Assembly (NCBI RefSeq): GCF_030445035.2
Contig: NC_080699.1
Location: forward strand, 1-64,000
From: Dasypus novemcinctus
Taxonomy: Eukaryota > Chordata > Mammalia > Cingulata > Dasypodidae
Length of the DNA: 64,000 nucleotides
Reading direction: 5' to 3'
Made by a program: the position numbers and the translations under genes. Below are positions 13,314-53,640 of this stretch, piece after piece (position 1 is the first letter of the stretch; every line of letters starts with the position of its first letter). The notes under the pieces are model-generated. The model was not told the DNA's origin. It saw only the letters and a program-made list of their open reading frames with translations, and ran no database searches.

Positions 13314-15553
13314 GTCCCAATGCCCTCCTCTAGTCATGCCTTACAGGAGTTCAAGTGGAACCATTTGAATTCTCCCACCCCCTTCCCCCAAGTCTTCATC
13401 TTCACCCTTCTCCTTGATCTGTGCCCAGGATCTGAGAGCCTTTGTGGTTCTTGGCTGGAGTGGCCTGCTTACTTGCAACAGTGGCCACCAGGAGTGAAAG
13501 CTTGGGGCTTCCACTCCTAGGAGTTGGGGCTTCTGGGCATGGTAGGGAGGGCTCTGGTGAGAGGACGAGCTTTTCAGGGCAGAAAGTTTGGGAAAAAGCC
13601 TGCAGTATTGAGTGGACCATTTGCTGAGAGCCATAGAGAGCAAGCTGCAGAGGAGGCAGTGAGAAAGGGTCCCCACTGAGCATGAGCTGGTTATCTACCT
13701 GGAACAGAGCAACCTGTGGCTGTACTCAAAGAATTCCCCAACCAGATAAACATCACTAAGGATGGCCAAAGGACGTTCCTGGTGCTGAAGGTGAATGTGT
13801 CTCTCCTGGACACCGTGTTACTTCCTCCAGGACTTGACGACCAACAACTACCACCAGAGATACATGATCGGGAAGTGGGTGCCAGGGGCAAGTTTGAGCT
13901 GCAGGTTGTTGCTGTGTCTCCATTCGCCATAGCCCACCCATCTTCTGGACACACCGGGTGAAGGTGCCCATCTCTTTCATCAAAGTCAAACTCACCAGCA
14001 AGCTCAACAGCAGGGGCCAGATCATGTTGGACTCCTTACATAAATATGAGCCCTGCATTCACATAGTGAGGGTTGAGGGACCCCAGTGGATGATCACCAA
14101 CCATTGCTTTCCAAAGACTCAGTTCATAGAGGTGACAGCTTACCAGAATGAAGAGAACATAACTCTTAAAATTCAATGTAATACAGTGGCAAAAGCTTTC
14201 CTTGATGCAAAGAAAAGAAGCAATCAAAGATGTACCAGAAGGACCTGGATTCATCAAACTGGGTGTTCTCAATGAATCCAGTGCCATCTGTCCACCTGCC
14301 AGCCCCCAGTCTCAGGTTGGAGGTCCTCTCTCACTCTCCTCCATGCATGGCTGTGGAAGATACTCTGCCCTGAGGAGCCACCACTCAACCCACCACCCCA
14401 GTCCTGATATTCATAGGAATACTCTCCAACCTATCCTGACAAGTCATCTGCAAGTCTATCCATGTTCCAACCTCATGACAAGTGGTCCAGCCTTGGGATG
14501 CCTGCCCATACCAGCATGATACCCATGAGCACCATGAGAACATGGATCCACCTACTGGTTCTAGCCAGAACCACAACCTGTGGTCTGTAAGTAATGGCTC
14601 CAGCACACCTGGCTACCAGACACTAGGGATGTGCAATGGGCTGGGAGCCCAGTTCTTTTCAGGCTCCACTGCACGCTGTGCATCAGTCACCCTCATGATC
14701 TCAGCTTCTTTCTCAGCTTCTTCCCTGCTGTATGAAGAGGGTGCCATGGACACAGACATTCTTGACAGCCAGTATGATAACTCAGCAGAAGTTTGACTCA
14801 TAGCCTTATGAACACCATGTTGCCACCTTCTATGTGGATTACAGACTTTTTCTTGAAAGATACACTGATTTTTTTGCTGTGGCAACCGAGGGTTGATTTA
14901 CTTGTCTACTAGAGAGGTATAACATGGGGCAAGGGAAGGAAATAAAGCATTTTAACTTCATTGTAAATTAAGAGGAGGAATGCACATTCTATTTAACAAA
15001 CACACCAGAACAAAACAAACTAGCACTAATGCCACCACCATCTATTTTTCCATTATCTGCAACAGCAGTTTAGTCCTGTAGCAGTTTATATGCTACAGGT
15101 GAAGGTAAGTTTGAAAACAACATATTTTTTGCCTAAATCACCATTATTCATAATAAAATAAATTACTCGCTAGGGTCCAGAAACTTAATTTTTGTATCAT
15201 ACAGCATAAAGATCACTTTGGTACAATAGAATTTATAAACTCTGCTGGTCTTATTTCAGAAATATAAAAAGCACACTTTTAATTCTCGCCTTGCTTTGAA
15301 GTAGTTTTCAGGACCATTTTGTGACAATTGCCATAGTTACAGGTTAGCTCTTATGAACGGAACTAATCTGAATACAACAGATTTTAGTTGAAATGTATAT
15401 TTGCTCTGTCTACTAGAAATTGTGTCACTTTGAGTAGAGTTATTTCCTTGTATTGGTAAACCTAGCACTGGTCATATTTTTCTTCTGACAAAGTAGCCAA
15501 AGACTATCAGAAGAAAGCATTTTCTATGAAATAAAGGCAATATGAAAAAAAGA
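13314..15553 (+). pseudogene. TBXT: Processed pseudogene (retrocopy) of brachyury TBXT
   Basis: Intronless cDNA-like copy of a T-box transcription factor. The T-box is recognisable over 13.70-14.24 kb ('LKVNVS', '[17 protein letters not shown]', '[18 protein letters not shown]', '[11 protein letters not shown]'). The C-terminal transactivation region follows at 14.2-14.8 kb ('LWSVSNG', 'GLGAQFF', 'DSQYDNSAEV'). These C-terminal words fit TBXT rather than TBX19. An N-terminal part is present at about 13,620-13,720 and a likely 5'UTR begins at 13,314. A long 3'UTR with AATAAA at about 15,530 runs into an A-rich tail at 15,543-15,553. Several frameshifts and stops (for example near 13,660, 13,740 and 13,955) destroy the frame. 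It lies inside an L1, with an imperfect target duplication (aaaactgtgaga left, a related stretch right). It cannot encode full-length protein. Confidence 0.88.
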
Positions 15554-28578: not shown

Positions 28579-30002
28579 TCAAATGATTTTTAATCTTTTC
28601 CAAATTAAACATAGAATTATTATAAGCAAGTGGAGTAATACAAAAGAGTTACTTTCATTCCAATCACATTTCAAACCCTTAAGTAGATTTAAGTTATATA
28701 CTTGATCTCTAAGATGTAAAACTGCTGATTCTAAATCATCAACTCTACTATTTAATTCTCCATCAATATATTCTTGACTATGCCATAAGTCACTAGCATT
28801 CTTATGCCAATCATGCATGTATTGTTGAGTCTGCACTGTCTCATGCAAGGTCACTGTAGCTGTAGTAGCAGCTGCAATGACACAAATCAGTCCTAATATG
28901 CCATCTATTATCAGTCCCACAAATCGCTTCGAGCATTTCAGGATTTCTTGAGCCATACAGAACAGCAGTTGACTCTGTTGGCAGGTGACGATTGCCAAAT
29001 TCGGTTCAGTCACTCTGGGATCCATACTCCCTGCCGCCTTCGAACCATTGTAATGAAATCTCCATTCTGTAAAATGTTCTCAGACAAACAAGTATGCAAG
29101 GCCCCACTTTTATAAAATAGAGCATTCTTGGTTATGGTTAATTTTCTGACCACAAACACATAAGGATGTCTTACACACAATTGAAAATGATGAATTTGAT
29201 CTAAATGCAGATATTGACCATTCTTACTATTATTCCCAATCCATTCTATAGTAGGAACTATTCCTAAAAAAAAAAACTTTCCACAAATTCTTCTGTTTAT
29301 GTATAGATGTAATGTTACACCATGGAGAAGGGATCCATTTCCCTTTATATTTCTAAACACTATTATTTTTGGTAAAAATCATTTTTTCATCCAAATCAAG
29401 GGATTCATGAAAAGGATATTGCATATTTCTAATTTGCTGTCCTTTACTATTTAGACCATACCAAATAAATCTGCCATTATATGGAAAGGGACTCCCCATT
29501 GGGGCACTCTCCCACACTATTCCATAGGAATCATTAAAAATGACAGATCATCTTCTTATATGGCACTCTTGCCATCCTTTTTTATCCCTACTGTCTTTTT
29601 GTGGACAATCATAAGTAGGATTTTTGGTTGTGATAAAATTGTAAGAGGGAAATAAAGTCACAATAGACTGAGTATTATTATTTTTAATATAATCATGGTC
29701 CGATTTTTAACATACATGCAGGAAGGATGGTTACCAATACATAAGGGTCAATAATCAAATAGTAATATGAGATTATAGATTCTTTGTCCTTCCTCATGGG
29801 GTTTAATTGGTAACCGATCATCAATTGGTCCAGGGAATATATGGGTCTTATTCAGATATATATGAAAGAATGGATCTTTCCAGGTTAACACTCTAAGTAA
29901 CGGAGGGTTAGGTATATAGGCTCAATAAGTGTAATTACTGGCAGCTTCCTCATTACTTATGATCACCATCATCAGAAGTTGTAGGAGACCCCACCTCTTC
30001 AT
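28579..30002 (-). pseudogene. env: Defective env of the provirus (SU and TM)
   Basis: Env frame beginning near a start codon at 30,002 (minus), followed by a hydrophobic, signal-like 'WGLLQLLMMVII'. The surface part (30.0-29.05 kb) is broken by many stops and shifts; one open piece is 29,360-29,010. The transmembrane part (29,025-28,579) is still open for 148 codons. It shows a hydrophobic, alanine/glycine-rich stretch resembling a fusion-peptide region ('LGLICVIAAATTATVTL'), a helical region and a C-terminal membrane anchor ('LLHLLIIILCLIW'). The expected role is receptor binding and membrane fusion. The interrupted SU makes a working envelope impossible. TM is the only preserved part. Confidence 0.82.
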
Positions 30003-30072
30003 TCTGAAGTTTAATCCTCTTCACAGGTAGCCAAATTTGTCCTCCATTTTCTGAAATTACAAGAGCATAGCC

Positions 30073-32200
30073 TCACCCCCATACTTTGATCCTGCCTTTT
30101 TTCCATTCATTGCTTAAAATATCTTTCCAGAATATTGGTTGGTCTTTATTTCTTGTGTCCACTGTAGATGTTTGACATTTTCTAAAGTGACATTCCACAG
30201 TTGTCAATGAATTATAAATATTAAGAAATTTTAAAGTAAATAAAGCTTTTGCCAATTGATCTTTTGGTGTTATAATACCATCATCTCCCCCTTTTTGTTT
30301 TAAAAGCATAGTTTTTAGGGTATGATGGCTGCGTTCAACTATGGCTTGACCTGTAGGATTATAAGGAATACCAGTAACATGCTCGATAGCATACGTAGAA
30401 CAAAAAGAAGTAAAAGACTTACTTATGTAAGAAGGACCATTATCAGTTTTAATTTTCAAGAGGCATCCCATTACAGCAAAAGCAGACCATAAATGGGAGC
30501 GAACATGATGAAAACGTTCACCACTTTGTGCAGTAGCCCACAAAAAATGAGAGTAAGTATCAGTGCAAACACGGACATATCGTAATTTACCAAATGATGG
30601 TATGTGAGCAACATCCATCTGCCACAGTTGATTAGTAATAAAAATATGAGCTGTTTCAATATAGCCTACAGTTAAACACACATATTCGGAGTCAGAGACA
30701 ATATTCAAGGGCTCTTGAAACGTTTGTAAAACCTTAATAATGGCTGAAAGCACCGTGCATTGAGCAGACGAATAAGGAGTCTGCCAAACCTGTTCTTTTT
30801 GAGAAGTAACGTATGCTGCTTTTCCATTACTATGACCATCAGTAAATACTGTACATGCATTTTCAATAGGAACAGTTCTCACAATTTTTGGTAAAATCCA
30901 AGTGGTTCTTTGTAAAAATGTTAACAGTTTGGAAGTAAGATAATGATTATCAATAATGCCTTGAAAATCACTAATAGCAATTTGCCATTGAGGATTAGTT
31001 ATATATAAATGTTGAATTTCTTCATGAGAAAGATTGCAAATAATTCTATCTGGATCAGACCCCTTTAACTGTAACAACCTCACATGGCCTTTTGCTAGTA
31101 TGGAAATCATTTTTTGGCGATATGTTTGCAATCTCTTTTGTTTATTATTAGGTAGAAAAATCCATTCCAATATACCTTCTTGCCAAAATAAAGCTGTAGG
31201 AGATTGAGGGGTTGAGAAAATAATTAAATCAACAGCTTTATCAGGGTCTATTTGTGTTAATTGCCCTTGAGAGATTCAATCCTCTATCAATGCGAATTCT
31301 TTTTTCAGCCTCTTTAGACAAGATTCTAGGGCTAGACAGATCGGAATCTCCTGTTAATGTTTGAAATAAATGAGTTAACATATAATTAGAGATTCCTAAT
31401 GTTGGTCAAATCCAATTAATATCTCCTAGCAATTTTTGGAAATCATTTAAAGTATTTAACTTGTCTTGGCATATTTGTACCTTTTGTGGTATAATACGTC
31501 CATTAGCTAATTTCATACCCAAATAACAATATGGTGCATTCCTTTGAATTTTTTCAGGGGCAATTTGCAAGCCATACTCAGGAAGAATTTGTTCAGCATA
31601 CTGAAATAACTGTTGCAGTTTGTCATTTGAAGCATGAGCAAACAATATATCATTCATATAATGAATAATCATTGCTTTTGGAAATTTTGCTCTTAATGCT
31701 TCTAAAGGTTGATGCACAAACAATTGACACATGGTAGGACTATTCATCATACCTTGCGGTAATACACACCATTGATATCTTTGCATAGGTGCCTAATTAT
31801 TAAGAGCAGGTACTGAAAAAGCAAAGTTTTCTTTATCAGCAGGATGCAAAGGAATCATGAAAAAGCATCCTTTAAATCAATAATAATTATGTGCCAATCT
31901 TTTGGAATCATGGATGGTTGTGGAGCCCCAGGTTGCAAAGGTCCCATAGAGCTCATGACCTTGTTGATAGCTCTTAGATCAGTTAACAGTCTCCAATTGC
32001 CTGATTTTTTTCTTAATAACAAACACAGAAGAATTCCATGAACTACTAGGAGGCTCAATATGTTTTTGCGTTAACTGTTCTGTTACAAGAATATGAAGGG
32101 CATTAAGTTTTTCAACTGTGAGGGGCCATTGATCAACCCATACAGGTGTATCTGTTAGTCAAATTATAGGTATTGGGCTGCCCTTTTGTTCAATGACCCC
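30073..32200 (-). pseudogene. pol: Defective pol of the provirus (RT, RNase H, integrase)
   Basis: The RT starts near 32,200. 32,058-31,855 holds the fingers ('[13 protein letters not shown]', '[10 protein letters not shown]') and 31,786-31,406 the palm ('LPQGMMNSPTMCQ', then YMND where YMDD is expected). After a stop and a frame change, 31,170-30,073 is open for 365 codons. It holds the RNase H start ('VFTDGHSNGKAAYV', 'SDSEYV') and the integrase core. The integrase triad is visible: Asp in 'WQMDVAHI', Asp in 'KTDNGP', and Glu 36 residues later in 'GQAIVE' (DD35E). The RNase H end and the zinc-binding N-terminus of integrase are missing by an apparently in-frame deletion after 'SDSEYV'. Stops between pieces make pol non-functional. 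Confidence 0.92.
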
Positions 32201-33260
32201 TATGGTAAATTTTCCTGCCCAGAATTTTGTTGACCTAAATGATACCCAAATCCTCTGTGATCTCCTTTTCTTCTAGTATTATATTGCATATCCATATATT
32301 AAAACTTTGCTTGTTCTGACAAAGTAGGAATGTGAATAAAAGCTCCCCAATGACCAAGCAAATCACATTCCCACAAGTTGATACCCACAACTGCTACATA
32401 AGGTTGTAAAGTAGATTTTTGTCCATCCAGACCTAAAACATCAAATATAGCAGTACTCTGGTATACATCATTCATTGTACATATGCCAGTAAGCACAGTG
32501 GGTACTTTCTGCAATGTCCAAGATTGAGGCCAATGTCACTTAGCAATAATAGATACATCAGCACCAGTATCTACTGGTCCAAAAAATACCTTCCCATTGA
32601 TGGTAATTGTTGTCTCTGGCCTGTCATCACCTACAAAAGTCTGCCAATAAATTCTTTCTCCTGTAGAACCAAATCTACCTTTTCTATTAAAGGGGAGGGT
32701 ACTTGGTTTATGATAAGGAAGCAATAGTAATTGAGCAATCCTTTGTCCAACATTAATTTGAACTTGACTCACTGCTTGTACCATTACTTTTATTTCTTCT
32801 TTAAAGTCACTATCAATAACACCAATTTGAACCAATAATCCCTTCATAGTCAGACTACTTCTTCCTAATATCAAACCAACAGTATCAGAGGGCAACGGTC
32901 CTTTTACTCCAGTAGATATAGTTTGCATACCCATTGCCGGTGTTATAAGCTTAGTTTCAGTAGATGGGAGATCTACTGCAGCACTGCCTCTTGTGGCAGC
33001 TTTTAATTCTGAAATTGGGATGCATGTAGCTGGCCATTGCTGACTGGATATTGTTTGGCCAGGCTCATATTGTTTGTCTGAGGGCCCTGAGCTAGGCCCA
33101 CAAAGTGGTTTCCTGACCCAATTGGAGTTCCATTTTTTTTGAAATTTAGACCTGCACTCATTGGCCCAATGATATCCTTTCCTACATACTGGACATATCT
33201 TAGATGGAGATTGCTGACTTCTATTCTGAGTGGGATGAGCCGGATAAGATTGACACTCTG
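32201..33260 (-). pseudogene. pro: Defective dUTPase-protease region of the provirus
   Basis: An open segment (33,282-32,536) begins in the second Gag zinc knuckle ('CPVCRKGYHWANEC'). It runs through a trimeric dUTPase-like domain ('GSAAVDLPS', 'MKGLLVQIGVIDSDF', 'GQRIAQLLLLP') into a retropepsin active site ('PVDTGADVSIIAK'). A stop codon at 32,538-32,536 cuts the protease just after the DTGA motif. Reading continues beyond it to about 32,299 ('INLWECDLLG'), followed by a G-patch-like stretch ('GFGYHLGQQN') at about 32,240. dUTPase upstream of protease is a betaretroviral arrangement. Confidence 0.92.
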
Positions 33261-34714
33261 ATAATGACCAAGCTTTCCACATTTAAAATAATTTCCTTTC
33301 TTTCTTTCCTCCTTTTTACTACCTTTAAAAGCTGTGGCCAAGACCGCCATCTGGTGGGTGGTGGAGCCAATATCCTGACAAGCTTTAACATAATCCTGGA
33401 TTGAACCTCCTGCTGCCTTTAAGGGTCGAATTCCCCTTTTACGTTCACTATTAGCCTGATCAAATGCAAGCGTTAACAAAATTAACTCTCTTGCTTCAGG
33501 TATCTCAATTGTTTTCATCAGAACGTCGGTTAATTGGGCTACAAATTCTACATAAGTTTCATTAACTCCCTGTATTATTTTAACAAAAGACTGCATTGGC
33601 CTTCCAGGAGCACAAATCCATTTCCAAGCAGCCAAACATGAATTGCGCACCTGGTTTATGGCCTGATCATCATAATGAAGCTGCTGTTGAATGCCAGACC
33701 ATTCACCAATACCTAATAACTGTTCAGCAGAAATAAGAACAGGAGGATTTTGCACAGCATTACGGCGCGCAACCATATTGGCTTCATCTGCCCAACAGGT
33801 TTTAAATTGTAAGAGTTCAGCTGGATTTAAAACTGTTCTAGTTAACATTTCCCAGTCCCATGGAATAAGGCAGTCAGTTTGAGCCAACCCTTGTACCAAA
33901 CCAAAAGCATAAGGGCTATTAGTTCCAAATTGTGCACACGCTTGTTTAAGTTCTTTCAAAATTTTAAATGGCAATGGTTCATGATGAGCATATATTCCTC
34001 CTTGGGGGTTATTGGCATCAGGGGGAATTTGTTGAATATTTACTGGGAATGCTTGTAATAATTGCATTGCCTCAGGATCCCCTTCTCGGGATCCTTGTAA
34101 TAAGCAATGCATCATTGGGGTTGTAGGAGCCAGATTGGGTATAAATATGCTTTTAATATATGGTTGGGTGTCAATGGCATCAGTAAATATCCCCGGGGCT
34201 ACAGGCATAGTAATCGCTGGAGCCATAGGTCAGCATTACATAAATTAGGATAAATGCCAGCTTTAGAAATATTCAATTTAGACATTTGTTTAGGTAGAAA
34301 AGGATTAGTTTCTTTTTCATTGGAAGGCTCATCCTCCTCCTTGTCCTCTATTTCCTCCCTGTCCTCACTCTGATGACCCACGTCACGGGGCTCCCTGGAA
34401 AAGATGGTCATTTCTTCCTCCTCCGTTTCAGACCGCAGAGGATCTAAGGCTGCTGCAGTCTGTTGCCCTAGCGTCCACACTGATAACGGTATGGTTTCTC
34501 CTTTTTTATATGCTCTACGTAGCGGCTTCATTATCTGTTTCTACTGTTTAAGATTTAAAAGATTTTTCCCTTGTGGCTGAAACCAGTAACAGTGTTTTTG
34601 TACTAGAGCAAAAAGTTCAAGTAAATCTGCTGTTTTTACTGAGACTCCAACAGTATTTAAAAGAGTTTTTAGTGCCTGTGAATATTCTTCCAGATGTCCT
34701 GGTTGATTACCCAT
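33003..34714 (-). pseudogene. gag: Defective gag of the provirus
   Basis: The start codon at 34,714 gives 'MGNQPG', a glycine-2 myristoylation-type matrix start. One in-frame stop (34,543-34,541) is followed by a further open stretch to 34,199 (acidic, 'EDKEEDEPSNEKE'). A frameshift near 34,200-34,226 leads to the long capsid frame (34,226-33,003), with 'YAFGLVQGLAQTDCLIPWDW', 'LLQFKTCWADEA' and 'GVNETYVEFVAQL' near the major homology region. The first zinc knuckle has Tyr for its first Cys ('YFKCGKLGH'), and a frameshift lies inside it near 33,260. The second knuckle continues in the pro frame. Gag builds the virion shell. This copy cannot make a full one. Confidence 0.92.
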
Positions 34715-36245: not shown

Positions 36246-36879
36246 GACCCAGGCACAGATCATAGGCAGGATGGCGTCCTAGTGGCTGGTGCTGGGGAAA
36301 GATGGGGGTGGGCTCCCCCTGATGCTGTCAGGGCAGACGGCAGGTGGGGCAGACGGCAGGTGGGGCAGACGGCAGGTGGGGCAGAGGCCTAAGGCCAACA
36401 GGAGGCAGGAGGGCACTCTCTAAGCAGGGCAGGGCAGCGGATTCTTAACCAAGGCTGCAAACGCACAGACCATGTGGCAACTGCCCTGACAGGCATCCTG
36501 CGTCCAGCGCCGAAAGGAGAGGCAGGCCCAGGCCCGGGAGCCCTGCTCAGGCCTGGAGTCACCTGGATGGCTGGCCAGGGAGTGGGCAGGCCGGGAAGCA
36601 CCAGCTGCTCTGCATCCTTGGGCAGTGGCCATCACTCAGGGGTGATTCCAGCAGGGTGGAGGGCAGGCAGCAGACCTGCCTGCAGGTCTGCAGCAGATTT
36701 AGCAGCAAGGGCATTTAATCCAAGGACTCCTAATGGGACGTGGCTGGAGCCAGGAGGCACTGATACATGAAAGTTGGGCCTCCAGGCCTGCTTTGATTCA
36801 AAACCCCATAGAGAGAACCCTTCCCTGGGGGCCAGGAGGCTCAGGGCTCCAGGCCTGCTTTAATCCAAAACCCTGCAGG
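36246..36879. other. GC-rich low-copy sequence with a 17-bp minisatellite
   Basis: 36,326-36,382 has about 3.5 copies of a 17-bp unit (gcagacggcaggtgggg). 36,745-36,877 has two diverged copies of a ~70-bp block ('gccaggaggc...ctccaggcctgcttt'). A third version appears at 46,905-46,975, on the other side of the full-length L1, showing that the L1 split this tract. No gene is recognised. Confidence 0.6.
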
Positions 36880-38671
36880 GGGGGAGGTGGGGCAAGATGG
36901 CGACTGAGTGAGTGCACTTTACAGTCTCTCCTGCAAAGAGGCAGCCAAGTGGGGCTGGAGTCTTGTCAGAGTGGGCTCTCTTGGGGGCTTGCAGGGTGGA
37001 GGGTGGGTGGACATGGATTTGGAGAGAGTGGCAGAGGTGGAAGGTAGAATTGGGCTTACAAGTACAGAGGTCGGAAGCTGTGGACTGGCTGGACCCTTCC
37101 CCCTGGGGCTGAAGGCCACGTGTTTCCTGAGATCTGTTGGTTGTGCAGTGGCATTCCTGGGCCCCGTGGCCCCCAGATGCATTGTCCCCAGGTCAGTGCC
37201 CCCTGAGCGCCCATAGCCTGTGTTCCATGAACTTACATGCCCTGGGTCTGCAGAGTCCTGGACTTCCCTTTCCCAAGTCCAGCGTTCCTGGAGGTCCAGA
37301 ATTGCCTTAGCCCTCCGGTTTTGGACCGACTCTGTGGGTGGGAGGGATTCAGTGGGGGGTGCAGTAGGGGGGCCTGGCTAGTATGGGTTCAATTTTCTGG
37401 TGTCCCCCCCCTTTTTTTTTTTTCTTTTCTTTTTTTCTTTTCTTGTGCTAGGAGGAGCATACCAGCTGGCTTGGGGAGAGTCTGGGAAGAGAGGAGTGGC
37501 GAATCTGCTGAGAGAGGCTGATTCACCTAAACACCCTGGGATAGGAAAATTGGCCTGGCAGAAGGTGGAGTCAGAAAATCAACAAGCCCTCTCATAGCAC
37601 ACCTAAAGGAGAGGGACTGTAGGAGCTGCTTTCCAAGCCTTCAATAGCATACTTGATGTTCCTGGTGAGGTGTGGGTGCTCTCTCTCTGGAAATTAAGAG
37701 TCATTGTTTCCTGTGTGGAGCTGATTCAACAAGGACCCACTTGAACCTCTTATGGGACCTTTCAGGCAGCTTTCCTACTGCCTGGGAGAGAGGGAAGTGA
37801 GGAAGGAAGAAAAGGGGGAACGTCAGATCCCTAAGCGTTTTATTTAACTACAAACAGGATTCCTTGCTTGAAACTTTCCCTAGTATTTGGTTGGTTTTTC
37901 CTTGTTTTTCCTTCCTCTTTATCCCCACAAGGTCCTTTTTTCTTTCTTTCTCTTTTTCCTGCTTACTTCCCCACTCCCTTTTGTCTCTTTTTTTTTTTCT
38001 CATTCTTTCTTTCTCTGCTTTCTTATTCGTCTTACATTAGGTGCAGCAGGGAGAGCTTCACATTTGCTGTATTTCCTCATCCTCCATTTACTCTTTTCTG
38101 TGTGAATTGATTTTGGCCACCAACACTATTCCCTTTCCTCTACATCTTTCTATCCTCCATCATTGATTGTTTCTCTTAAAACACATCTCTCTTTGTCTGC
38201 CCCCCTATTTTTTTTCACTTTTTATTACTAATACCTTTGTTCTGTTTTCTGCCTTAGATGCGCTCTTTATATTATTGTCCTCTCTTTTCTCTTTCCCTCT
38301 TTCCCAAACACACAGACCTTTTAATTCACACTGTATTCCTCCCCATATTCAGATTTTTATGTACTCTAGCTTCCTTACTGTTATAACTCTACATACCTTA
38401 CATGAGTCTAATATCCATTCTCCTATATCTCACATGGTCCCTCTGTTAAAATTTACTATCAATACTACAATTATTCATTTTCTTTTCTTACTCCTTTTGC
38501 TTTCTCTGGCCCTAATATTTTCCTTCAAGTGAACTTAGCCAAAAAAAAGGAAATAGAATAAGAAGAACAAAGTGACAAAGAGAAGACTTAACATGCATGC
38601 AAAAACAACAACTAATTAAACTCCAAACTAGACAAAGAATCTAAGTAACTGACTAAACCTGTCAAGATAAA
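36880..38671 (+). promoter_or_regulatory. L1 5'UTR / internal promoter region
   Basis: Begins with CAAGATGGCG at about 36,893, the YY1-type core found at L1 5' ends, in a GC-rich first ~700 bp. An interrupted C/T-rich tract lies at 37,405-37,445, followed by pyrimidine-rich sequence to ~38,500. This is where L1 RNA transcription would start. Confidence 0.7.
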
Positions 38672-39633
38672 ATGATGACCAGACAGCAACAAAAAACTAC
38701 AAACCAAACCAATAATCAGGAAAACATGCCCCAATCCAATGAACAAACTAAAAACCAGGAAGAGGAGCAGAACATCGAACAAGTAATTAAAGATCTCAAA
38801 GCATATATTAGGGACCAGTTTGATGAGGTGAAGGAAGAGATTAAGAATATGAAGAAAACAATTGGAGAGAATACAGAAGAAATTGCAATCATACCCAAAA
38901 ATATAATGGATATGGTGCTGATGAACAGCACAATTCAAGAAATCAAAAATACACTCTCAGTAAATAACAGCAGACTTGAAGAGGCAGAGGAGAGATTAAG
39001 TGATGTAGAAGACAGTACATCTGAAATCAAACACATAGTAGAACTGATGGATAAAAAGATAGAAAAAATCCAGCAGGGGCTTAGGGACCTGAATGACAAT
39101 GCAAAACATGAAAACATACATATTATAGGCATCCCAGAAGGAGAAGAGAAGGGGAAGGGGACAGAAAGGGTGCTGGAGGAAATAATGACTGAAAACTTCC
39201 CAAACCTATTGTCCAGGAAGCACAATACACCCCAAACAGTATAAATCCCAACAGGCCTACCCCAAGACATATACTTGTCAAGCTACCCAACACTCAAGAC
39301 AAAGAAAAAATACTAAAAGCAGTGAGAGAAAAGAGAACCATCACACACGAAGGAAGGTCCATATGATTAAGTGCTGATTTCTAATCTGAAGCCATGGAGG
39401 CAAGAAGACAGTGGTATGACATAGTCAAGGTACTAAAAGAAAAAAATTTCCAACTGAGAATACTCTAGACAGCAAAGTTAGCATTCAAAAATGATGGAGA
39501 GTTCAAAATATTCACAGATAAACAGAAACTAAGAAAGTATGCCAACAAGAATTCTGCCCTTCAAGAAATACTACAGGGAGTTCTGCAGGAAGAAAGAAAA
39601 AAACAAGAGAGACAGAGTTGGAGGAGAGTTTAA
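38672..39633 (+). pseudogene. L1 ORF1 (RNA-binding chaperone), frameshifted
   Basis: The start codon at 38,672 opens 190 codons: a polar N-terminus and a long coiled-coil-like region ('EVKEEIKNMKKTIGENTEEI', 'RLEEAEERLSDVED'). The start of the RNA-recognition part follows ('NIHIIGIPEG'). A frameshift near 39,235 ends the first frame. The C-terminal domain is still readable to 39,633 in another frame ('EARRQWYDIVKVLKEKNFQ', 'DKQKLRKYANKNSALQEIL'), with two stops. L1 ORF1p forms trimers coating L1 RNA. Uninterrupted length would be ~320 residues, normal for the family. Confidence 0.92.
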
Positions 39634-39714
39634 GAGCAACTAAAAAGACAAAAACAGAAAAAGAAAATCAAACAGAATATGACAAACACAAATCCAAAGA
39701 AAATATGGCTAATA

Positions 39715-42700
39715 TAAGTAATTCCTTGAAAGTTATAACACTGAATGTTAATGGATTAAAGTCACCTGTCAAGAGACTCAGACTGGGAGACTGGATAAGG
39801 AAATATGACCCATCTATATGCTGTCTGCAAGAAACACATCTTAGACCCAGGGATTCAAGGAGGCTGAAAGTGAATGGCTGGGGAAGCAGACTTGGCCCAA
39901 TGGATAGGGCATCCACCAACCACGAGAGGTCCATGGTTCAAACCCTGTGCCTCCTTGACCCATGTGGAGCTGGCCCATGCACAGTGCTGATGCATGCAAG
40001 GAGTGCCCTACCATGCAGAGGTGTCCCCCGTGTAGGGGAGCCCCACACACAAAGAGTGTGCCCCGTAAGGAGAACCGCCCAGTGCAAAAGAAAGTGCAGC
40101 CTGCCCAAGAATGGTGCCATGCACACAGAGAGCTGACACAACAAGATGACGCAACAAAAAAAGAAACAGAGATTCCCAGTGCTGCTGATAAGGATAGAAG
40201 CAGTCACAGAAGAACACACAGCGAATGGACACAGAGAGCAGACAACTTGGGGGTGGGGAGGGGAAGAGGAGAGAAATAAATAAAAAATAAATAAGTCTTT
40301 AAAAAAAGAAAGTGAATGGCTGGAAAGCAATCTTACAAGCAAACAGTAATCAAAAAAGGGCAGGAGTAGCTATATTAATATCAGACAAAATACTTTGAAT
40401 GCAAAACAATTGTGAGAGACAAAGATGTACACTACATAGTAGTGAAAGGGATAATCTTTCAAGAAGAAAGAACAATCATAAACATTTATGTTCCTAACAA
40501 GGGTGCCTCCAAATACATGAGACAAACACTGGAAAAAATAAGTGAAGGAATAGATGCCTCTAAAATTATAGTGGGGGACTTTAATACACCACTATCTGCT
40601 TTGGACAGAACATCTCAAAAGAGAATCAATAAAGAAACAAAAACTTCAAACAATATATTAGAGGATCTGGATCTAATAGACATATACAGAACATTACACC
40701 CAAATACAGCAGGATATATATTTTTCTCAAGTGCACATGGATCATTCTCCAAGATAGACCACATTCTAGGCCACAGAAAAAGTCTCAATGAATTCAGGAA
40801 GATAGAAATCATACAAAATAATTTCTCTGACCACAGTGGAATGAAGCTGGAAATCTGCAAGGGCCAGAGACCCAGATTTGGCACCAAGATTTGGAAGTTA
40901 AACAACACACTCTTAGAAAAACAGTGGGTCAACGAGGAAATCTCAAAATAAATTAATAACTACCTTGAAACTAATGAAAATGGTAACACAACATATCCAA
41001 ACTTATGGGATACAGCAAAAGCAGTACTGAGAGGGAAATTTATAGCCATAAATTCATACATCAAAAAAGAAGAAAGAGTTAAAGTTGAAGAACTAAATGC
41101 ACACTCAGAGGAATTAGTTAAAAAACAACTAACCCCAAAGGAAGAAGAAAGAAAGAAAGAACAAAGATCAGAGCAGAACTAAATGAAATAGAAAATAAGA
41201 AAGCACTTGAAAAAATAAAACCAAGAGCTGGTTCTTTGAGAAAATCAATAAAATTGACGAACCCTTAGCTAGATTAACAAAGAAAAAAGACAGAAGATGC
41301 AAATACACAAAATAAGAAATGAGAAAGGAGATATCACCACTGATACCACAGAAATAAAGACTATCATAAGAGGATACTTTGAAAAACTATATTCCAACAA
41401 AAACAACTATTTAGAGGAAATGGACAAATTCCTAGAAACACATAAGCAGCCTACATTGACAAAAGACGTTGATGATCTCAACAAACCAATCACAAGTAAA
41501 GAGATAGAATCAGTCATTGAAAGGAGCCCTGGGCCAGATGGCTTCACAGGTGAATTCTACAAAACATTCCGGAAAGAACTAATACGAATCTTGCTTAAAC
41601 TCTTCCAAAAAATTGAAACAGAAGGAACATCGCCTAACTCATTCTATGATGCCAACATTACTCTAGCACCAAAGCCAAAAAGAGACATCACAAGAAAGGA
41701 AAATTACAGACCAATCTCTCTAAAGAACTTTGACATGAAAATCCTCAACAAAATACTTGTTAACCATATTCAACAACACATTAAATGAATTATACACCAT
41801 GACAAAGTGGGGTTCATTCCTGGTATGCAAGGATGATTCAACATAAGAAAATGAATTAATGTAATACACCACATAAACAGATTGAAGGGGAAAAAATCAC
41901 ATGATCATATCTACAGTTGCAGAAAAAGCATTTGACAAAATAAAGCACCTTTTCTTGATAAAAACACTGCAAAAGATCAGAATAGAAGGAAACTTTCTGA
42001 ACGTGATAAAGGGTATATATGAAAAACCCACAGCTAACATCATTTACAATGGTGCAATCCTAAAATCTTTCCCTCTAAGATCAGGAACAAGACAAGGATG
42101 CCCACTATCACCCCTCCTATTTAACATAGTCTTAGAAGTACTTGCTCAAGCATTGAGGAAAGAACCAGACATAAAAGGCATCCAAATTGGAAAGGAAGAA
42201 GTCAAAATTTCACTATTTACAGATGATATGATCCTATACATAGAAAACCCTTAGAAGTCTACAACAAAGCTTCTAGATCTTATAAATAAGTTCAGCAAAG
42301 TCACAGGTTACAAGATAAATGCACAAAAATCAGTAGCATTTCTGTACACCAATAATGAGAAAGCTCAGGAGGAAATCAGGAATCAAATACCATTCACAAT
42401 AGTAAATTAAAAAATCAAATACCTAGGAATAAATTTAACTAAAGAGGTAAAAGACTTATACACAGAAAACTACACAACACTGTCTAGGAAATCAAAGAAA
42501 AGCTAAATAAATGGAAGAATATTTCCTGTTCATGGATAGGAAGACTAAATATTATTAAGATATCTATCCTACCAAAACTGATCTACACATTCAATGCAAT
42601 CCCAATAAAAATCAACACATCATTCTTTAATAAACTAGAGAAACTAACTATGAAATTTATTTGGAAAGGAAAGAGGCCCTGAATAACCAAAGACATATTG

Positions 42701-43787
42701 AAAAAGAAAAATGAAATTGGAGGAATCATACTACCTGACTTCAAAACATACTACAAAGCTACAGTAGTGAAAACAGCATGGTATTGACACAAGGATAGAC
42801 ACATTGACCAATGGAACCGAATTGAGAGTTCTGATGCAGATCCTCATATATACGGCCATATGGTGTTCGACAAGGCCACCAAACCCTCCCAACAGGGAGA
42901 GAATGGCCTCTTCAACAAATGGAGCCTGGAGAACTGTATATCCATATGTAAAAGAATTAAAGAGCATTACCAACTCACACCTTACACAAGAATCAACTCA
43001 AGATGGATCAAAGACCTAAAAATAAGAGCCAAGACCATAATGACTTTGGAAAGCAGTGTAGGGAAGCATCTACAGGACTTTGTAATAGGAAACGGCTTTA
43101 TGAACTTCAGACCAAAAGCATGAGCAGCAAAAGAACAAACAGATAAATGGGACCTGCTCAAACTTAAAGCCTCTGCACCTCAAAGGAGTTTGTCAGGAAA
43201 GTGAAAAGAGAGCCTATGCAATGGGAGAAAATATTTGGTAACCATATATCTGATAGGAGACTTATATCTTGTATATATAAAGAACTCCTATATCTTGAAA
43301 ATAAAAAGACAAACAGCCCATTTTTAAAATGGGAAAAAGATTTGAACAGACACTTCTCCAAAGATGATATACAAATGGCTAAAAAACACATGAAAAATGC
43401 TCAAAATCCGTAGCTATTAGGGAAATGCAAATCAAAACAACTATGAGATATCATCTTACTCCCATAAGACTGGCAGCTATCAAAAAATCAGAAGACTACA
43501 ATTGTTGGAGAGGATGTGGAGGAATGGGAACACTCACCCACTGCTGGCGGGAATGCAGAAGGATCCAGCCATTCTGGAGGACAGTTTGGCTGTTTCTCAA
43601 AAACCTAGCTATAGATTTGCCATATGGTTCAGCAATTCCACTGCTGGGTATATACCCAGAAGATGTGAAAACAAGAACACAAACTGATATATGCACACCA
43701 ATGTTCATGGCAGCACTATTCACTATTGCCAAAAGTTGGAATCAACCCAAATGCCCATCAACAGATGAATGGATAAATAAAATGTAG
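39715..43787 (+). pseudogene. L1 ORF2 (endonuclease-reverse transcriptase), interrupted
   Basis: Starts 'MANISNSLKVITLNVNGLK', the apurinic-type endonuclease N-terminus, with 'CLQETHL' following. A DAS SINE (39,882-40,307) interrupts at 'LKVNGW'. The endonuclease continues at 40,412-40,951 ('GDFNTPLS', 'SKIDHILGHRKS'). RT follows at 41,297-42,254 ('[13 protein letters not shown]', 'RPISLKNFD', '[13 protein letters not shown]', and FTDDM at the catalytic site, where FADD is usual). The C-terminal cysteine-rich end runs to 43,787 ('HCWRECRRIQPFW'). Stops and shifts separate the pieces, so the enzyme cannot be made whole. Confidence 0.93.
39882..40307 (+). mobile_element. DAS-type SINE inside L1 ORF2
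   Basis: DAS head with box B 'catggttcaaaccc' near 39,930, shared body and A-rich end. A perfect 16-bp target duplication 'gaaagtgaatggctgg' lies at 39,866-39,881 and 40,308-40,323. It post-dates the full-length L1. Confidence 0.96.
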
Positions 43788-46700
43788 TATATACATACAA
43801 TGGAATACTACTCAGCTATAAGAACAAGTACAGTACAAACATGTGATAATATGGATGAATCTTAAGAACCTTATGTTGAGTGAAGCAAGTTAGGCATTGA
43901 AGGGCAAATACTACATGACCTCTCTGATATGAAATAAGTAAACCAAGCTGTCTCAGAGAGCTAGAGACTGGATGATAAGTTTAAAGGTAGTTGGTGGGTA
44001 GAGGAAAGTTGCGAGCTGACAGCTACTTGGGTGAAATCTATGATAAGCTGGAGGTAGGTATTTGTACAGGGAAGGGATAAAATGGGGGCATAGGGATAAC
44101 TTTGGTTGGAGCTGCATGGGCTTTATGGGTGCTAGGGATGGGAGGATGGGTCAGATTGCCCAAGAAATTGGGGAGAGGGTGAAGGGAACATTTGACCATG
44201 GAGAATTGTCAGGTATGTGGTTGAAATTGTGGTGCAGAGAAAACTCTTTAGAGAATGTAATATGGAAGTTTGCCTGTTTGGGATGCTTACGGGGTGGGGC
44301 ATCTGACACAGGGCAAGCTTCTGGGGAGTGTGTGAGTGCTCATTTTGTCATAGTGGATTATATCATTGGGTGGAGACCCATATAATGAGAGTGAAGGTAT
44401 ACCCACATCCTGGGGAGGACTGATGTTCTCAGAAGGAATTGTATCTCTTGAGAGAATCAGTGGCTTCCAATGGGTTAGGGCAGTCAAGTATGTCAAGCCC
44501 TCAACAATTTTGCAAGTATCTCTGAATATGGTCCCTCAAGTAATGAAGATGGTGGGCCCTGAGGGAAGGGGGAAAGAGGTGTTGAATACATGAAATCAGG
44601 GTAACTGTGGGGCAATGCAAGTGTTCCACAAGATCATGCCATGATGGATATAGGTCATGTTAAATGACACCAAAAATGTATAAAAGTCTATAGGCTAAAA
44701 TGTAAACCATAATGTAAAACATAAGATAACTAAAAATTTAGAAAATTGTAGTCTAAAATATAAACTATGATGTAAACCCAAATGGAACCATGTTTGAAAG
44801 CTATTGTTTCAATATTTGTACATTAGCTGGAGCAAATATAATATGAACATGTAAAAAGATCACTGTTGGAGAAGGGACAAAGGGTTTGATGTTGGCTATG
44901 TGGGAGTACCATATATTGTATATGTGAATTACTGTGACCTAAAACTTGTGTCAAGAGAAACTTAATAATCAGGGGAAAAAAAATAAAAGAAAGGAGGTAG
45001 ACACTAAGGAAGAAATGGAAGAAATTTCCTTGCCACTGTACATACAGGGCAACACCTGTGGCAGTGATGAAAGGCAAAATGTCAAAAACAAAGCTTTTTC
45101 ATTTTTTCATTTCTTTGATACCCCAATTTATTTTTCCTTTATTTAATTTTTCTAAATTTCTATGCAATCTATATCTAACCTTTAAACCCACACTCTATTC
45201 CATTTTTCTATTAATGGAACCTGGCAATATATTGGGCTTCCTTTTTGAAAAAGTTTTGGACTACAGAGAGGTTCAACTATGGCAAGGGAGGAGCACTTGT
45301 ATAGGGTGTCATTAGTGGGGGGTACACAGTTGGGAGAGAGTTCTCCAGGGCATGTATACAGGGTACATAGAAAGGTTTGGATATTTTCATAGTGGTTTCA
45401 GTTGGAAACAACAGATGAGAGAGTCCTGAGTTCCTGACCAGGGGAGCTCTATCACATTCCCCAAGTGGAACAACAACAATCCCCCAAGTGCAATGGCAAA
45501 GACCAATAAAGATGGATGGTCCAATGATGAGCCCTTGATATGGATGGCTCCGATTATGAGCCTGTGTGCCTGAAATATGAACTTGGCCTGTAGCTGTGGG
45601 GTGCCTAAGAGTTACCTCCCAAGAGCCTCCATGTTGCTCAAATGTGGCCACTCTCTAAGCCAAACTCAACATGTAGATGCATTGCCTTCCCCCCAGCATG
45701 GGACGTGACTACTGGGGATGAGCCTCCCTGGCACCGAGGGATTACTACCAAGCACCAGCTGATGATGTAACTACAAAAAGACCATGAACAAAGAGGTCAA
45801 CTCAGACAGGCAGAATATCTCAGCCTACATGTAATATCAGGTGTTAAAAACTGCTTTTTGACTTTGGATAAAAAGGTGGAAATGGAAAGGACAAGTGAAA
45901 TATATGGCTAAGAGTCTCCAAAAAAGAGTCGGGAGGTCATCAGGGGGTGATGCTTATGCATGCCTCAGCAGGGTACCAGAGACAGCCAAGATGGAAACCC
46001 AGGTGCTGGTTCTCCTGAGGGCTGCAGTGACCCACAGGTTCTATGGTCAAGGCAGATGGCTCTGGCGTTCAGGGCCATGTCAGTTGGCCCTACTTAGGAG
46101 TTTGTCTTCCTGAGTGTGATGGAGTTGGACTCAGATATGACCTTTCTACACAAGCCTCTTCTGTTATTTTTACCAGACCTGTGGTTAGTGTTTGGGTTGG
46201 TGTATACTCAGGAGACCTGAATTTCTGAACTATTCATGTGACAGCCATGCCTGGACCTCAGCAGACTTGTGGCTCCTACCCTCTGGTTTTTTGGACTTAC
46301 CCTGGCCAGCTGACAGGGAGGTGAAGAGGGTCAACCACCACACCAGGGAGCTGCAAGCAGGAGAATTGCATCCATCATCCATGTGGAATCTAAATCCCCC
46401 CTTGATGTAGAAGGGGACTGGACATAGCCATCCCAGGTCCACAAGATGGAGGAATAGAGTATGGATTAGAGTGGACTTACTGGTGTTCTGCTGGGGAACA
46501 ATTGTTATTAGTAAGGGAAGAAATTGTAGTAGTGATGTGCAGAGGGTGGCCACGGTGGCTGCTGATGGTCGGGAGAGGGAAGAAAAGATATGGTGTGGGG
46601 GCATTTTCAGGATTTGGAGTCGTCCTAGGTAGTGCTGCAGGGATGGATGCTGGACATTATGTGTCCTGTCGTGGCCCACTGGGTAGACTGGGGGAGAGTG

Positions 46701-48442: not shown

Positions 48443-48473
<31 letters not shown>

Positions 48474-48604
48474 CTGCAGGCGTTTCAGGTAGTGACAAGT
48501 GCTGGTCACTGGCCCAGACCCACTGGCCGCCTCTGGGACAGCCTGAGAGGGAGGCGGGGGCTGCAAGGACGGAAGGAGGTAGGTATTGGGGATGGAAGGA
48601 AAGA
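46903..48604. other. GC-rich low-copy sequence upstream of a gene, with a CA repeat
   Basis: No gene with supported structure is seen. 48,432-48,473 is a (CG)n/(CA)n dinucleotide repeat. G+C and CpG rise towards 48.6 kb, where promoter elements start. 46,905-46,975 continues the block split by the L1. Open frames on both strands (47,937-48,498) are composition-driven. Confidence 0.5.
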
Positions 48605-48728
48605 TGACATCACGGGAGGGGTGGTGACGTCACAAGAGCCAAGCTGCGAGCCGCCCTCTGATTGGACGAGGGCGTGGATAAAAGGCCGGTTGCTGGGGCG
48701 AGGCCAAGCAGACGCTCCGCGAGTAGCG
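48605..48728 (+). promoter_or_regulatory. Core promoter: two CRE-like sites, inverted CCAAT box, TATA-like box
   Basis: TGACATCA at 48,605-48,612 and a perfect palindromic CRE, TGACGTCA, at 48,625-48,632. ATTGG (inverted CCAAT) lies at 48,661-48,665 and GATAAAAGG at 48,677-48,685. Spacing puts a transcription start near 48,705-48,715, about 15-25 bases before the start codon. CREs are bound by CREB/CREM/ATF factors. The set is what a real RNA polymerase II promoter looks like, and it is not part of a repeat I recognise. Confidence 0.72.
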
Positions 48729-50183
48729 ATGGCGCCTCTGCGGCTGCTGCTGCTGCTGCTGCTCCAGGCGGGTGAGGGGTGCCCCCTCGCCCCCTCGACC
48801 GCTCCCGGACCCCCTGCCCAGACAGCGGGGTTCCCCTTGTTCGCATCTTCCTTCGCTCCCCTTTGCGGGACCGGGAGTCTGCGGACCCGCACTCGACGCC
48901 CTCTGGACCCGCTCCTGCCTGCGGACCCCCCATGGCAGCCGTCAGGGTTCGAGGCCCCGGTGTTACCCCGGCGACCACGGACCCGCACCAGACACCCCCT
49001 GGACGCCCCCCTGCCTGCGGACCCCCCATGGCAGCCGTCAGGGTTCGAGCCCCCGGTGTTACCCCAGCGACCACGGACCCGCACCAGACACCCCCTGGAC
49101 GCCCCCCTGCCTGCAGACCCCCCATCCCAGCCTGCAGTGTGCGAGCCCCTGCCAATCCAACACCAACTATGGAACTGCACTCGACCCCCCCTGGACGCCC
49201 CCCTGCCTGTGGACCCCCCATCCCAGCCTTCAGTGTGTGAGCCCCCTCTGTTACACCAACCAGGGAACGACTCCCAATGCCCCCCGGACACCCCCCTGCC
49301 TGCAGACCCCCCACCCCAGCCTTCAGTGTGTGAGCCCCCTCTGTTACACCAACCAGGGAACGACTCCCAATGCCCCCCGGACACCCCCCTGCCTGCAGAC
49401 CCCCCATCCCAGCCTTCAGTGTGTGAGCCCCCGCTGTTACACCAACCAGGGAACGACTCCCAGAGCCCCCTGGACGCCCCCCTGCCTGTGGACACCTCAC
49501 CCCAGCCTTCAGTGTGTGAGCCCCCCCTGTTATACCAAACAGGGAACGACTCCCAGTGCCCCCTGGATGCCCCCCTGCCTGCAGACCCCCCATCCCAGCC
49601 TGCAGTGTGCGAGCCCCTGCCAATCCAACACCAACTATGGAACTGCACTCGACCCCCCCTGGACCCCCTCCAGCCTGTGGACCCCCCATCACTACCCTCT
49701 GTTGGAGCCCCCGTTTATCTACCACCAGCCAAGGACCTGCACTGGATGCCCCCTGGACCCCCTCCTGCCTGCCCCATCCCAGCCCTTAGTGTCCGAGCCC
49801 CCGCTGTCCCCCTGACGGCCAGGGCTGAAGATCTTCATCTGGAGACTGACCTCCACCTGCTGTCCTGGTGGCGAGTCATCTGGGGAGCCCTCTGCGTGAT
49901 GGCCCTTGTGCTATTAGAAGACAAAGAATGGCAAGAGCTCGAGCAGACATACCTGGACCTCAAAGAGTTGTCAATAACAACAAAAGTCCTACTTTATAAG
50001 TGTGATCAACAACTTGAACTCATAAAAACAACTTTCCAGGCAACGAATAACAACCTCATCAAGGAAGGACAGGACATGAAGAACGTTGCTGAGCGGCGGG
50101 CCTCCCTGAGCACACTCAGAAACGCTGAGGCATTTCCAGCAAAGCCCGGGGATGACCATGCAGAGCAGGGGGTCCCTGGCTGA
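48729..50183 (+). CDS. Unrecognised single-pass membrane protein with proline-rich tandem repeats (484 aa)
   Basis: I do not recognise this protein. The start at 48,729 (gcgATGG) is preferred because it follows the TATA-like box and begins a signal peptide, MAPLRLLLLLLLQAGEG. The frame is open further upstream to 48,366 but would precede the promoter. Residues ~53-355 are 9-10 repeats of 31-32 residues around 'PLDAPLPADPPSQPSVCEPP'. They carry paired Cys (VCEP...SQC) and sequons (GNDS, WNCT), so a glycosylated luminal or extracellular domain is inferred. A membrane segment follows at ~377-396 ('WWRVIWGALCVMALVLL'), then a ~90-residue tail with coiled-coil character ('EWQELEQTYLDLKELS'). Only this frame runs through repeats, membrane segment and tail. 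A strong splice-donor-like GTGAGG at 48,772 is the main caution: the repeats could be intronic. However, a splice from it to the AG at 49,821-49,822 would break the frame. A single-exon gene or an incomplete gene model is possible. Confidence 0.62.
   Translation: MAPLRLLLLLLLQAGEGCPLAPSTAPGPPAQTAGFPLFASSFAPLCGTGSLRTRTRRPLDPLLPADPPWQPSGFEAPVLPRRPRTRTRHPLDAPLPADPPWQPSGFEPPVLPQRPRTRTRHPLDAPLPADPPSQPAVCEPLPIQHQLWNCTRPPLDAPLPVDPPSQPSVCEPPLLHQPGNDSQCPPDTPLPADPPPQPSVCEPPLLHQPGNDSQCPPDTPLPADPPSQPSVCEPPLLHQPGNDSQSPLDAPLPVDTSPQPSVCEPPLLYQTGNDSQCPLDAPLPADPPSQPAVCEPLPIQHQLWNCTRPPLDPLQPVDPPSLPSVGAPVYLPPAKDLHWMPPGPPPACPIPALSVRAPAVPLTARAEDLHLETDLHLLSWWRVIWGALCVMALVLLEDKEWQELEQTYLDLKELSITTKVLLYKCDQQLELIKTTFQATNNNLIKEGQDMKNVAERRASLSTLRNAEAFPAKPGDDHAEQGVPG
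48888..49790 (+). repeat. Coding minisatellite, 93-96-bp unit, 9-10 copies
   Basis: Units are all multiples of three (93 or 96 bp), so the frame is kept through the array. 'cccccatggcagccgtc' recurs 96 bp apart (48,930 and 49,026). A segment of about 95 bp (49,101-49,195) is repeated almost exactly at about 49,569-49,663, 468 bp or five units away. The last unit(s), after 49,670, are degenerate. Confidence 0.9.
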
Positions 50184-50356
50184 GCTCCACCAGGTCCAGG
50201 AGGTGGTGGAGGGTTACGGCAGGAGGCAGAGCAGTGCAATCAGCGTTACAAAATAAACATAGAGTGAAAGCCCTACAACGCCCACCCCAGGAGGACGCGG
50301 AGGGTCCTGAGGCTGTGCCGTCTCCTGGAGGAGAGGTGGCCCTGAACTTGCCCCCC

Positions 50357-50362
50357 AATAAA
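50357..50362 (+). terminator. Poly(A) signal AATAAA
   Basis: AATAAA 174 bases after the stop codon at 50,181-50,183, the likely mRNA 3' end of the repeat-protein gene. Another AATAAA is at about 50,251. The next 15 bases run directly into an LTR. Confidence 0.6.
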
Positions 50363-50377
50363 GGACTTTTATTCCAT

Positions 50378-51012
50378 TATTAGTTTGCCAAATGGATTTT
50401 TATGTGAAGTACCAGAAATCAGATTTTATAAAGGGTGCTTATTTGGGTAAAATCTTAGTCCCAAGGCCCTAAAGATTCCAACTCAAGGCTGCTCTCACCA
50501 GTCTCAACACGTGCTTCCATGCATTGAAGCAAGATTCCGCTGCTCTCTGCAAGGGTTCAGCCTGCCTCTGGACTTCCTCTCTCCTGGCACAGGGCTCGCT
50601 TCTTTCTGGGCTTTTTATGTCAGCCTTGGCTGTCTTCCCAAGGTCAGCTGTGAGCTATCTGGCAAATGGTCCCTCTCTCCCCAGGGCCTTAGCTGTTTGA
50701 GCCTTCTCCTTTCTGTCATGTGGCAGGATCAAAATAACAAGGTTCTCTCCTCTAGTGTCTATGGAGCTCTCTCTGTTCCCGTGCAGCTTGAGTGTCCATT
50801 TATACCAGCCCACCAAGGGGGTGGGACGCAACCTGAGTTACGCCTTACTGATGTAGCCCAATCAGAAGCCCTAAACTGATTTTTATCAAGTAAACTTAAT
50901 CAGAGGCCCCTCACAGACTTTAATACAAAGGGTATCACACCCAGAGGAATAGATTAGTTTACAAATCATCTTCCTCTTTTTGGGATTCATAAATAATCTC
51001 AAACTGTCACTG
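50378..51012 (-). repeat. LTR (MaLR/ERVL-like), minus
   Basis: The minus strand is collinear with the LTR at 4202-4707. It starts 'cagtttgagattatttatg' against 'cagtttgatatggttatg', and both end '...ggc..actaata' after a 'tttataaaa' motif. It has a TATA-like 'ggtataaatgg' on the minus strand near 50,800. The exact right edge is uncertain and no clear target duplication was seen. Confidence 0.7.
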
Positions 51013-52714: not shown

Positions 52715-53131
52715 GAATCTTTTTTTTTAAATTTATTTGTTTATTTCTCTCCCCTCCCCCCTCTGCTGCCCCGGTTGTCTGTTCTCTGTGTCCATTTGCT
52801 GCATCTTCTTTGTTCGCTTCTGTTGTTGTCAACAGCATGGGAATCTGTGTTTCTTTTTGTTGCGTAATCTTGTTGTGTCAGCTCTCCATGTGTGCGGCGC
52901 CATTCTTGGGCAGGCTGCACTTTCTCTCGCTCTGGGTGGCTCTCCTTACTGGGCGCACTCCTTGCGCGTGGGGCTCCCCCACTCGGGAACACCCCTGCGT
53001 GGTAGGGCACTCCTTGCCCATCAGCACTGCACATGGGCCAGCTCCACACGGGTCAAGGAGGCCTGGGGTTTGAACCGCTGACCTCCCATGTGGTAGACAG
53101 ACACCCTAACCACTGGGCCAAGGCCGCTTCC
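52715..53131 (-). mobile_element. DAS-type SINE (minus)
   Basis: A T-rich start at 52,719, the DAS body in reverse, and the tRNA-like head at about 53,055-53,131. Target duplications are not clean ('tgaatcttt' against 'cagatcttt'). It interrupts a CpG-rich stretch. Confidence 0.92.
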
Positions 53132-53640
53132 CTGATCCCAGATCTTTACCCAGCCCCTGTGCTCTTCCCGTGACCGGGCTCGGCCTGAAGCCTCTTCCCC
53201 GGTCGGGCTTGCTCTGCAGGTGGATAAACCACGAGTGGCCCCAAGGGGCAGGTCCAGGGCAGAAGCTCAGTCCAGGGCCGCCTGTGCTCCTTCTCGGAGG
53301 CACCTCCCGGCCGCCACAGGCCCCACCGGCCGCCCCCACCTCCCCGAGCCACCCCCACGCCCCCCTTCCTGCCGATTCCGCCCCCACCGGCTCACCGGCA
53401 GCATCTCCCGCCTCACCTGGGCCACCCGTCCGGGGAAATCCGGCGTCTGTGCCCCCTGCCCACGGCAGCAGCCTTCGGGTTCCAGGGAAACGGCCGCGGA
53501 ACAGCTGCCCCTGCGTGGCAGCTGCGTGCAGCGTGGGGCCGGCACCGCGAGCCTTCGGAGGGCGCCGGGGGCCACCAGCCGTCTGGAATTACCTGGCATT
53601 TCTCGTGCAGCCTTGGAGGGACCGTGGGCTTAGGAGTCCA
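53132..53640. other. CpG-rich unassigned sequence
   Basis: High G+C with many CpG dinucleotides, especially 53,380-53,600. It is separated from a similar stretch at 52,330-52,660 only by a SINE. Frames of 110-158 codons are open on both strands, without domains. It could be a remnant CpG island or first exon. Nothing confirms this here. Confidence 0.4.

What the first reader, a model, noticed from the sequence alone, without database searches (positions are those of the whole stretch)
48605..50362. Candidate unrecognised gene: proline-rich repeat membrane protein in a sea of repeats
Seen: CRE, CCAAT and TATA-like elements with proper spacing, a start codon in good context, a signal peptide, 9-10 in-frame repeats with Cys pairs and N-glycosylation sequons, one membrane segment, a coiled-coil-like tail, and an AATAAA. 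Only one of the six frames links all parts. Inferred: a type I membrane glycoprotein. I match it to no family I know. CRE-driven promoters of this compact kind are common among testis-expressed genes, so male germline expression is a guess.
Basis: partly seen in the sequence, partly recalled or inferred. Interest (0 to 1): 0.85.

Follow-up and report, generated by a model that had tools for sequence, protein, structure and literature searches.

The report
Small membrane-protein gene with intronic minisatellite
This stretch of what is probably a mammal's genome looks like a small two-exon gene for a membrane protein with a helical tail, and the proline-rich repeats that were read as protein are more likely a tandem repeat inside its intron that happens to lack stop codons.

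Summary
The listed parts are mostly present: CRE, CCAAT and TATA-like boxes, a leucine-rich start, a 93/96-bp array, a hydrophobic segment, a helical tail and AATAAA. "9-10 in-frame repeats" is overstated: unit 9 carries a 2-bp deletion, so unit 10 is read in another frame. The open frame is weak evidence: four of six frames are open over units 1-8, some + frame is open in 59.6% of 20,000 shuffles, and this frame is already open from 48099. Differences between units fall evenly over codon positions (14, 13, 13 of 29). A strong phase-1 splice donor follows the signal peptide (48772); an acceptor in the last unit (49783) joins it in frame to the tail. Best model: a two-exon, 147-residue membrane protein with nearly all of the array in its intron. 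The tail looks coding. Four better-scoring acceptors inside the array also keep the frame, so partial inclusion of repeats is not excluded. No homologue was found, in collections not shown to hold vertebrate proteomes; splicing and expression were not observed.

The parts
48605..48683 (+). Promoter-like cluster: TGACATCA (48605-48612), CRE TGACGTCA (48625-48632), inverted CCAAT (48661-48665), TATA-like GATAAAA (48677-48683)
   Evidence: 0 of 20,000 shuffles hold CRE, CCAAT and TATA-like words in this order
48729..48771 (+). Exon 1 coding part: MAPLRLLLLLLLQA plus one base (signal-peptide-like, ends in phase 1)
   Evidence: splice donor at 48772 ranks 14 of 3,075 GT sites
48772..49782 (+). Proposed intron (1,011 nt) holding all but about the last 25 bases of the tandem array
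   Evidence: Donor 48772; phase-matched acceptor 49783, score 2.82, reached by 199 of 4,282 AG sites
48882..49807 (+). Minisatellite of 93/96-bp units, 9.9 copies; unit 9 has a 2-bp deletion and unit 10 is partial
   Evidence: variation even over codon positions
49783..50183 (+). Proposed exon 2 coding part with stop: short ectodomain, membrane segment, long helical tail
   Evidence: 3-base periodicity, hydrophobic segment, structure model with mean pLDDT 84
50357..50362 (+). AATAAA polyadenylation signal
   Evidence: Read; a dispersed repeat with inverted matches at 4440-4707 begins about 50378

Best explanation
A compact two-exon gene. Exon 1 encodes a leucine-rich signal peptide and ends in phase 1 at 48771. 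The intron, 48772-49782, contains nearly all of a minisatellite that probably grew by repeated duplication of the 3' end of the intron, including the acceptor word and the start of exon 2. Exon 2, from 49783, encodes an ectodomain of about 27 residues, one membrane helix and a long cytoplasmic helix, probably a coiled coil. The product would be a 147-residue type I single-pass membrane protein whose tail works as an oligomerisation or partner-binding rod, made from a CRE/CCAAT/TATA-like promoter. Shown: the promoter words, donor and acceptor words with matching phase, lack of constraint in the array, a coding-like and helix-forming tail. Inferred: that splicing occurs, how the array grew, membrane topology, the role of the tail, and expression.
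For: Donor 48772 ranks 14 of 3,075 GT sites and is the only one above score 3 in 48700-50380. Acceptor 49783 keeps the tail frame and gives 147 residues. Phase-1 introns are in excess around the signal-peptide cleavage site (PMC1626468, abstract and passages); here the intron falls in codon 15. The matching acceptor word in units 1-8 is out of phase in 8 of 8, and the frame homologous to exon 2 meets TGA in 4 of these 8. Array variation is flat over codon positions, pN/pS 0.94 in the claimed frame, while two other frames are lower (0.74 and 0.79). Tail 3-base periodicity has chi-square 24.2; outside the main ERV (28-34.6 kb) and L1 (38.4-44.3 kb) stretches 20 of 1,705 windows reach it: 9 in an ERV pol remnant near 3.3 kb, 2 near 13.6 kb, 7 in the array and 2 on the tail. 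AlphaFold2 on the tail alone gives two helices (residues 2-30 and 34-104), mean pLDDT 84.2, against 45.3 for one control ORF of equal length.
Against: Four acceptors inside the array (49117, 49306, 49399, 49585) score 4.28, higher than 2.82 for 49783, and also keep the frame. The splice matrices were typed from general knowledge. Within the most alike units, 4-7, pN/pS in the claimed frame is 0.77 on few differences. An open stretch of 120 codons has a chance of 0.6% in one frame but 6% in any of six. The tail's codon-usage score is reached by 1,673 of 5,000 shuffles. The structure model has pTM 0.42, its five models range from 61.6 to 84.2, and the single control was not matched in composition. 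No homologue supports the protein, and no transcript data were available.
Confidence: 0.5

Rival explanations
1. Spliced gene with an acceptor inside the array, so that part of the proline-rich repeats is translated as an ectodomain of variable length (proteins of 213, 275, 306 or 369 residues).
For: Acceptors 49117, 49306, 49399 and 49585 score 4.28, the best in the locus, and all four keep the frame from exon 1 to the tail.
Against: No constraint in that frame. The CAG is present in 4 of units 1-9; the other five have CGG (2) or TGG (3) at that place, which looks like decay of a CpG (units). The frame reaches the tail only because of the 2-bp deletion in unit 9.
Confidence: 0.2
2. One reading: an unspliced 484-residue type I glycoprotein with a repeat ectodomain.
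For: One + frame runs from the ATG to the stop at 50183, with six sequons.
Against: Open frames are expected in such an array; the same frame is open for 630 nt before the ATG; flat substitution pattern; change of repeat frame at unit 9; strong donor after the signal peptide.
Confidence: 0.08
3. A decayed gene or chance assembly: promoter-like words beside a GC-rich minisatellite and an unrelated or pseudogenised tail.
For: No homologue in the searches made; any-of-six chance of an open tail is 6%; codon usage unremarkable.
Against: Ordered promoter words (0 of 20,000 shuffles), tail periodicity, confident helices against one control, phase-matched splice sites.
Confidence: 0.2

Closest known systems
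FAM209 (testis-enriched small membrane protein)
   Same: Similar size (mouse 170 residues), predicted cleaved signal peptide, short luminal part, one membrane segment, C-terminal part inside (PMC8627553, passages).
   Different: No FAM209 match in the Pfam scans; no direct sequence comparison was made; expression and function here are unknown.
CCDC107 (recalled, no call)
   Same: Signal peptide, one membrane segment and a coiled-coil tail in the same order, from memory only.
   Different: No sequence comparison was made.

Membership tests
FAM209 | Match to a Pfam model of the family | tested here: not met
   hmmscan against Pfam-A of the tail and the whole ORF (E up to 1) and of the 147-residue product (E up to 10): only DASH_Duo1, 14 and 13.1 bits against a cut-off of 25.4. 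That Pfam holds a FAM209 model is recalled.
FAM209 | Signal peptide, short ectodomain, one membrane segment, cytoplasmic tail | tested here: inconclusive
   Leucine-rich start and one hydrophobic segment are present; no signal-peptide or topology predictor was available.
FAM209 | Testis-enriched expression | not testable with these tools
   No RNA data.
Type I membrane protein with a phase-1 intron at the end of the signal peptide | Phase-1 donor at the end of the signal peptide and an in-frame acceptor | tested here: met
   Sites present by sequence; their use was not shown.
Proline-rich repeat (mucin-like) glycoprotein | Repeats constrained and translated in one frame | tested here: not met
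   pN/pS 0.94 and flat codon positions over units 1-8; frame change at unit 9.
CCDC107 | Sequence similarity to CCDC107 | not tested
   Recalled architecture only.

The most novel reading that the evidence does not exclude
A minisatellite that carries a splice acceptor in several of its units, all in the same phase, so that splice choice and copy number set the length of a proline-rich glycosylated ectodomain on one small membrane protein.
Probability: 0.1. Interest if true: 0.6.

Novelty: new member of a known kind. Interest (0 to 1): 0.3.

Why it matters
If the two-exon model holds, this is a small membrane-protein gene that gene prediction could easily get wrong, because a stop-free intronic minisatellite fuses its exons into one long false reading frame. 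It is also a worked example of why an open frame through repeats whose unit length is divisible by three should not be taken as coding.

Tried and rejected
Homologue searches found nothing: the tail (10 candidates, none at E up to 10), the last 200 residues scored on the final 120 (31 candidates, none at E up to 10), the whole ORF (the 7,993 candidates sharing most words, none at E up to 1), and the tail against viral contigs. These collections were not shown to hold vertebrate proteins, so this says little. Pfam and NCBIfam gave only matches far below their cut-offs for the tail (DASH_Duo1, E 0.045; PRK08862.1, E 0.15) and none for the whole ORF. The PDB sequence search gave none at E up to 1, Foldseek against PDB none at E up to 10, and Rfam none at gathering thresholds over the window. 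Ten ORFs elsewhere in the window, some overlapping, were scanned against Pfam to place the locus by its neighbours; 0 of 10 matched at E up to 0.1. Codon usage did not separate the tail from shuffles. Two recalled SINE-like words did not settle the species. A scan for bacterial-type promoters found none and is not relevant here. Acceptor 49823 was rejected because it breaks the tail frame, and 49831 because it scores -7.96. Acceptor 49729 (score 2.35) also keeps the frame, gives 165 residues and is a variant of the best model. One search for papers on intronic minisatellites with five terms returned none; a search for armadillo or testis membrane proteins led only to the FAM209 paper.

Full report
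What is there. The stretch 48605-50362 holds an ordered set of promoter words, a leucine-rich start at 48729, a tandem array at 48882-49807, a hydrophobic segment and a helical tail ending at the stop 50181-50183, and AATAAA at 50357-50362. CRE, CCAAT and TATA-like words in this order occurred in 0 of 20,000 Markov shuffles of 48451-48728 (words chosen after seeing them). One CRE somewhere in 64 kb is not rare by itself: 20 of 100 shuffles held at least one. The block 48501-49000 has GC 0.69 and CpG observed/expected 0.68.

The array as protein. The unit is 93 or 96 bp, so a frame free of stops in one unit tends to be free in all. Over units 1-8 four of six frames are open, and over units 1-9 three of six. 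When the alignment columns were shuffled 20,000 times, some + frame was open in 59.6% and a given frame in 24.4%. Between units 1-8 the variable columns are 14, 13 and 13 of 29 at codon positions 1, 2 and 3, and pN/pS is 0.94; two other frames give 0.74 and 0.79, so the claimed frame is not the most constrained. In the subsets, units 3-8 give 0.90 against 0.66 and 0.76, and units 4-7 give 0.77 against 0.48 and 0.30, on few differences (nine columns around the 3-bp gap, and units 0, 9 and 10, were left out of these counts). Unit 9 has a 2-bp deletion and unit 10 is read in another frame; the array's own frame stops at 49813-49815 (position read).

The splice model. A donor at 48772, right after MAPLRLLLLLLLQA, ranks 14 of 3,075 GT sites on the + strand. 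Acceptor 49783, in unit 10, scores 2.82 (199 of 4,282 AG sites reach this) and joins in phase to the tail, giving 147 residues. The matching acceptor word was found in units 1-8; it is out of phase in 8 of 8, and the frame homologous to exon 2 meets TGA in 4 of these 8. This fits an array grown from the 3' end of the intron, which is an inference. Against it, four other acceptor words inside the array, in units 3, 5, 6 and 8, score 4.28, better than 49783, and keep the frame, so partial inclusion of the repeats remains open. An excess of phase-1 introns around signal-peptide cleavage sites is reported in PMC1626468 (abstract and passages). The matrices are approximate and recalled.

The tail. 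Codon-position periodicity of 49821-50180 gives chi-square 24.2. Of 2,122 windows 90 reach it; outside the main ERV and L1 stretches 20 of 1,705 do: 9 in an ERV pol remnant, 2 near 13.6 kb, 7 in the array and 2 on the tail (the ERV and L1 labels are judged by eye from translations). The hydrophobic segment is reached by 71 of 5,000 codon-order shuffles. AlphaFold2 on the single sequence gives helices at residues 2-30 and 34-104 with mean pLDDT 84.2 and pTM 0.42; one control ORF of equal length, 53270-53629 on the minus strand and not matched in composition, gives 45.3. Codon usage is not informative: 1,673 of 5,000 shuffles reach the score, though only 4.1% of 25,458 windows do. An open run of 120 codons has a chance of 0.6% in one frame and 6% in any of six.

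Comparison. Pfam and NCBIfam gave only matches far below their cut-offs, the PDB sequence and fold searches gave none, and the protein searches found no homologue. In architecture the nearest protein I came across in print is FAM209 (PMC8627553, passages), but there is no sequence evidence of membership. The CREM/CREB paper (PMC3091680, passages) says that CRE and TATA do not predict regulation by CREM, so testis expression is not established.

Verdict. Probably a real, small and rather ordinary gene whose intron carries a minisatellite; the long repeat protein is probably not real. Neither splicing nor expression was observed.

Noticed in passing
window 28582-34229: Long minus-strand ORFs with a zinc-knuckle-like and a polymerase-like stretch: an endogenous retrovirus, judged by eye from the translations.
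   Followed up: no
window 2017-4100: Decayed retroviral pol-like pieces on the minus strand, with strong 3-base periodicity near 3.3-3.5 kb.
   Followed up: no
window 38657-43940: L1-like ORFs and repeats on the + strand, judged by eye.
   Followed up: no
window 50378-50684: A dispersed repeat begins just after the poly(A) signal; three pieces match 4440-4707 in inverted orientation.
   Followed up: partly
window 53057-53127: tRNA-Gly (anticodon ACC) call on the minus strand in a GC-rich stretch.
   Followed up: no
window 8581-8668: Perfect tandem duplication of 43 bp.
   Followed up: no
window 36331-36385: Perfect 16-bp tandem repeat, 3.4 copies.
   Followed up: no
window 13561-13950: A stretch with 3-base periodicity as high as the tail; translations viewed, no gene assigned.
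   Followed up: partly
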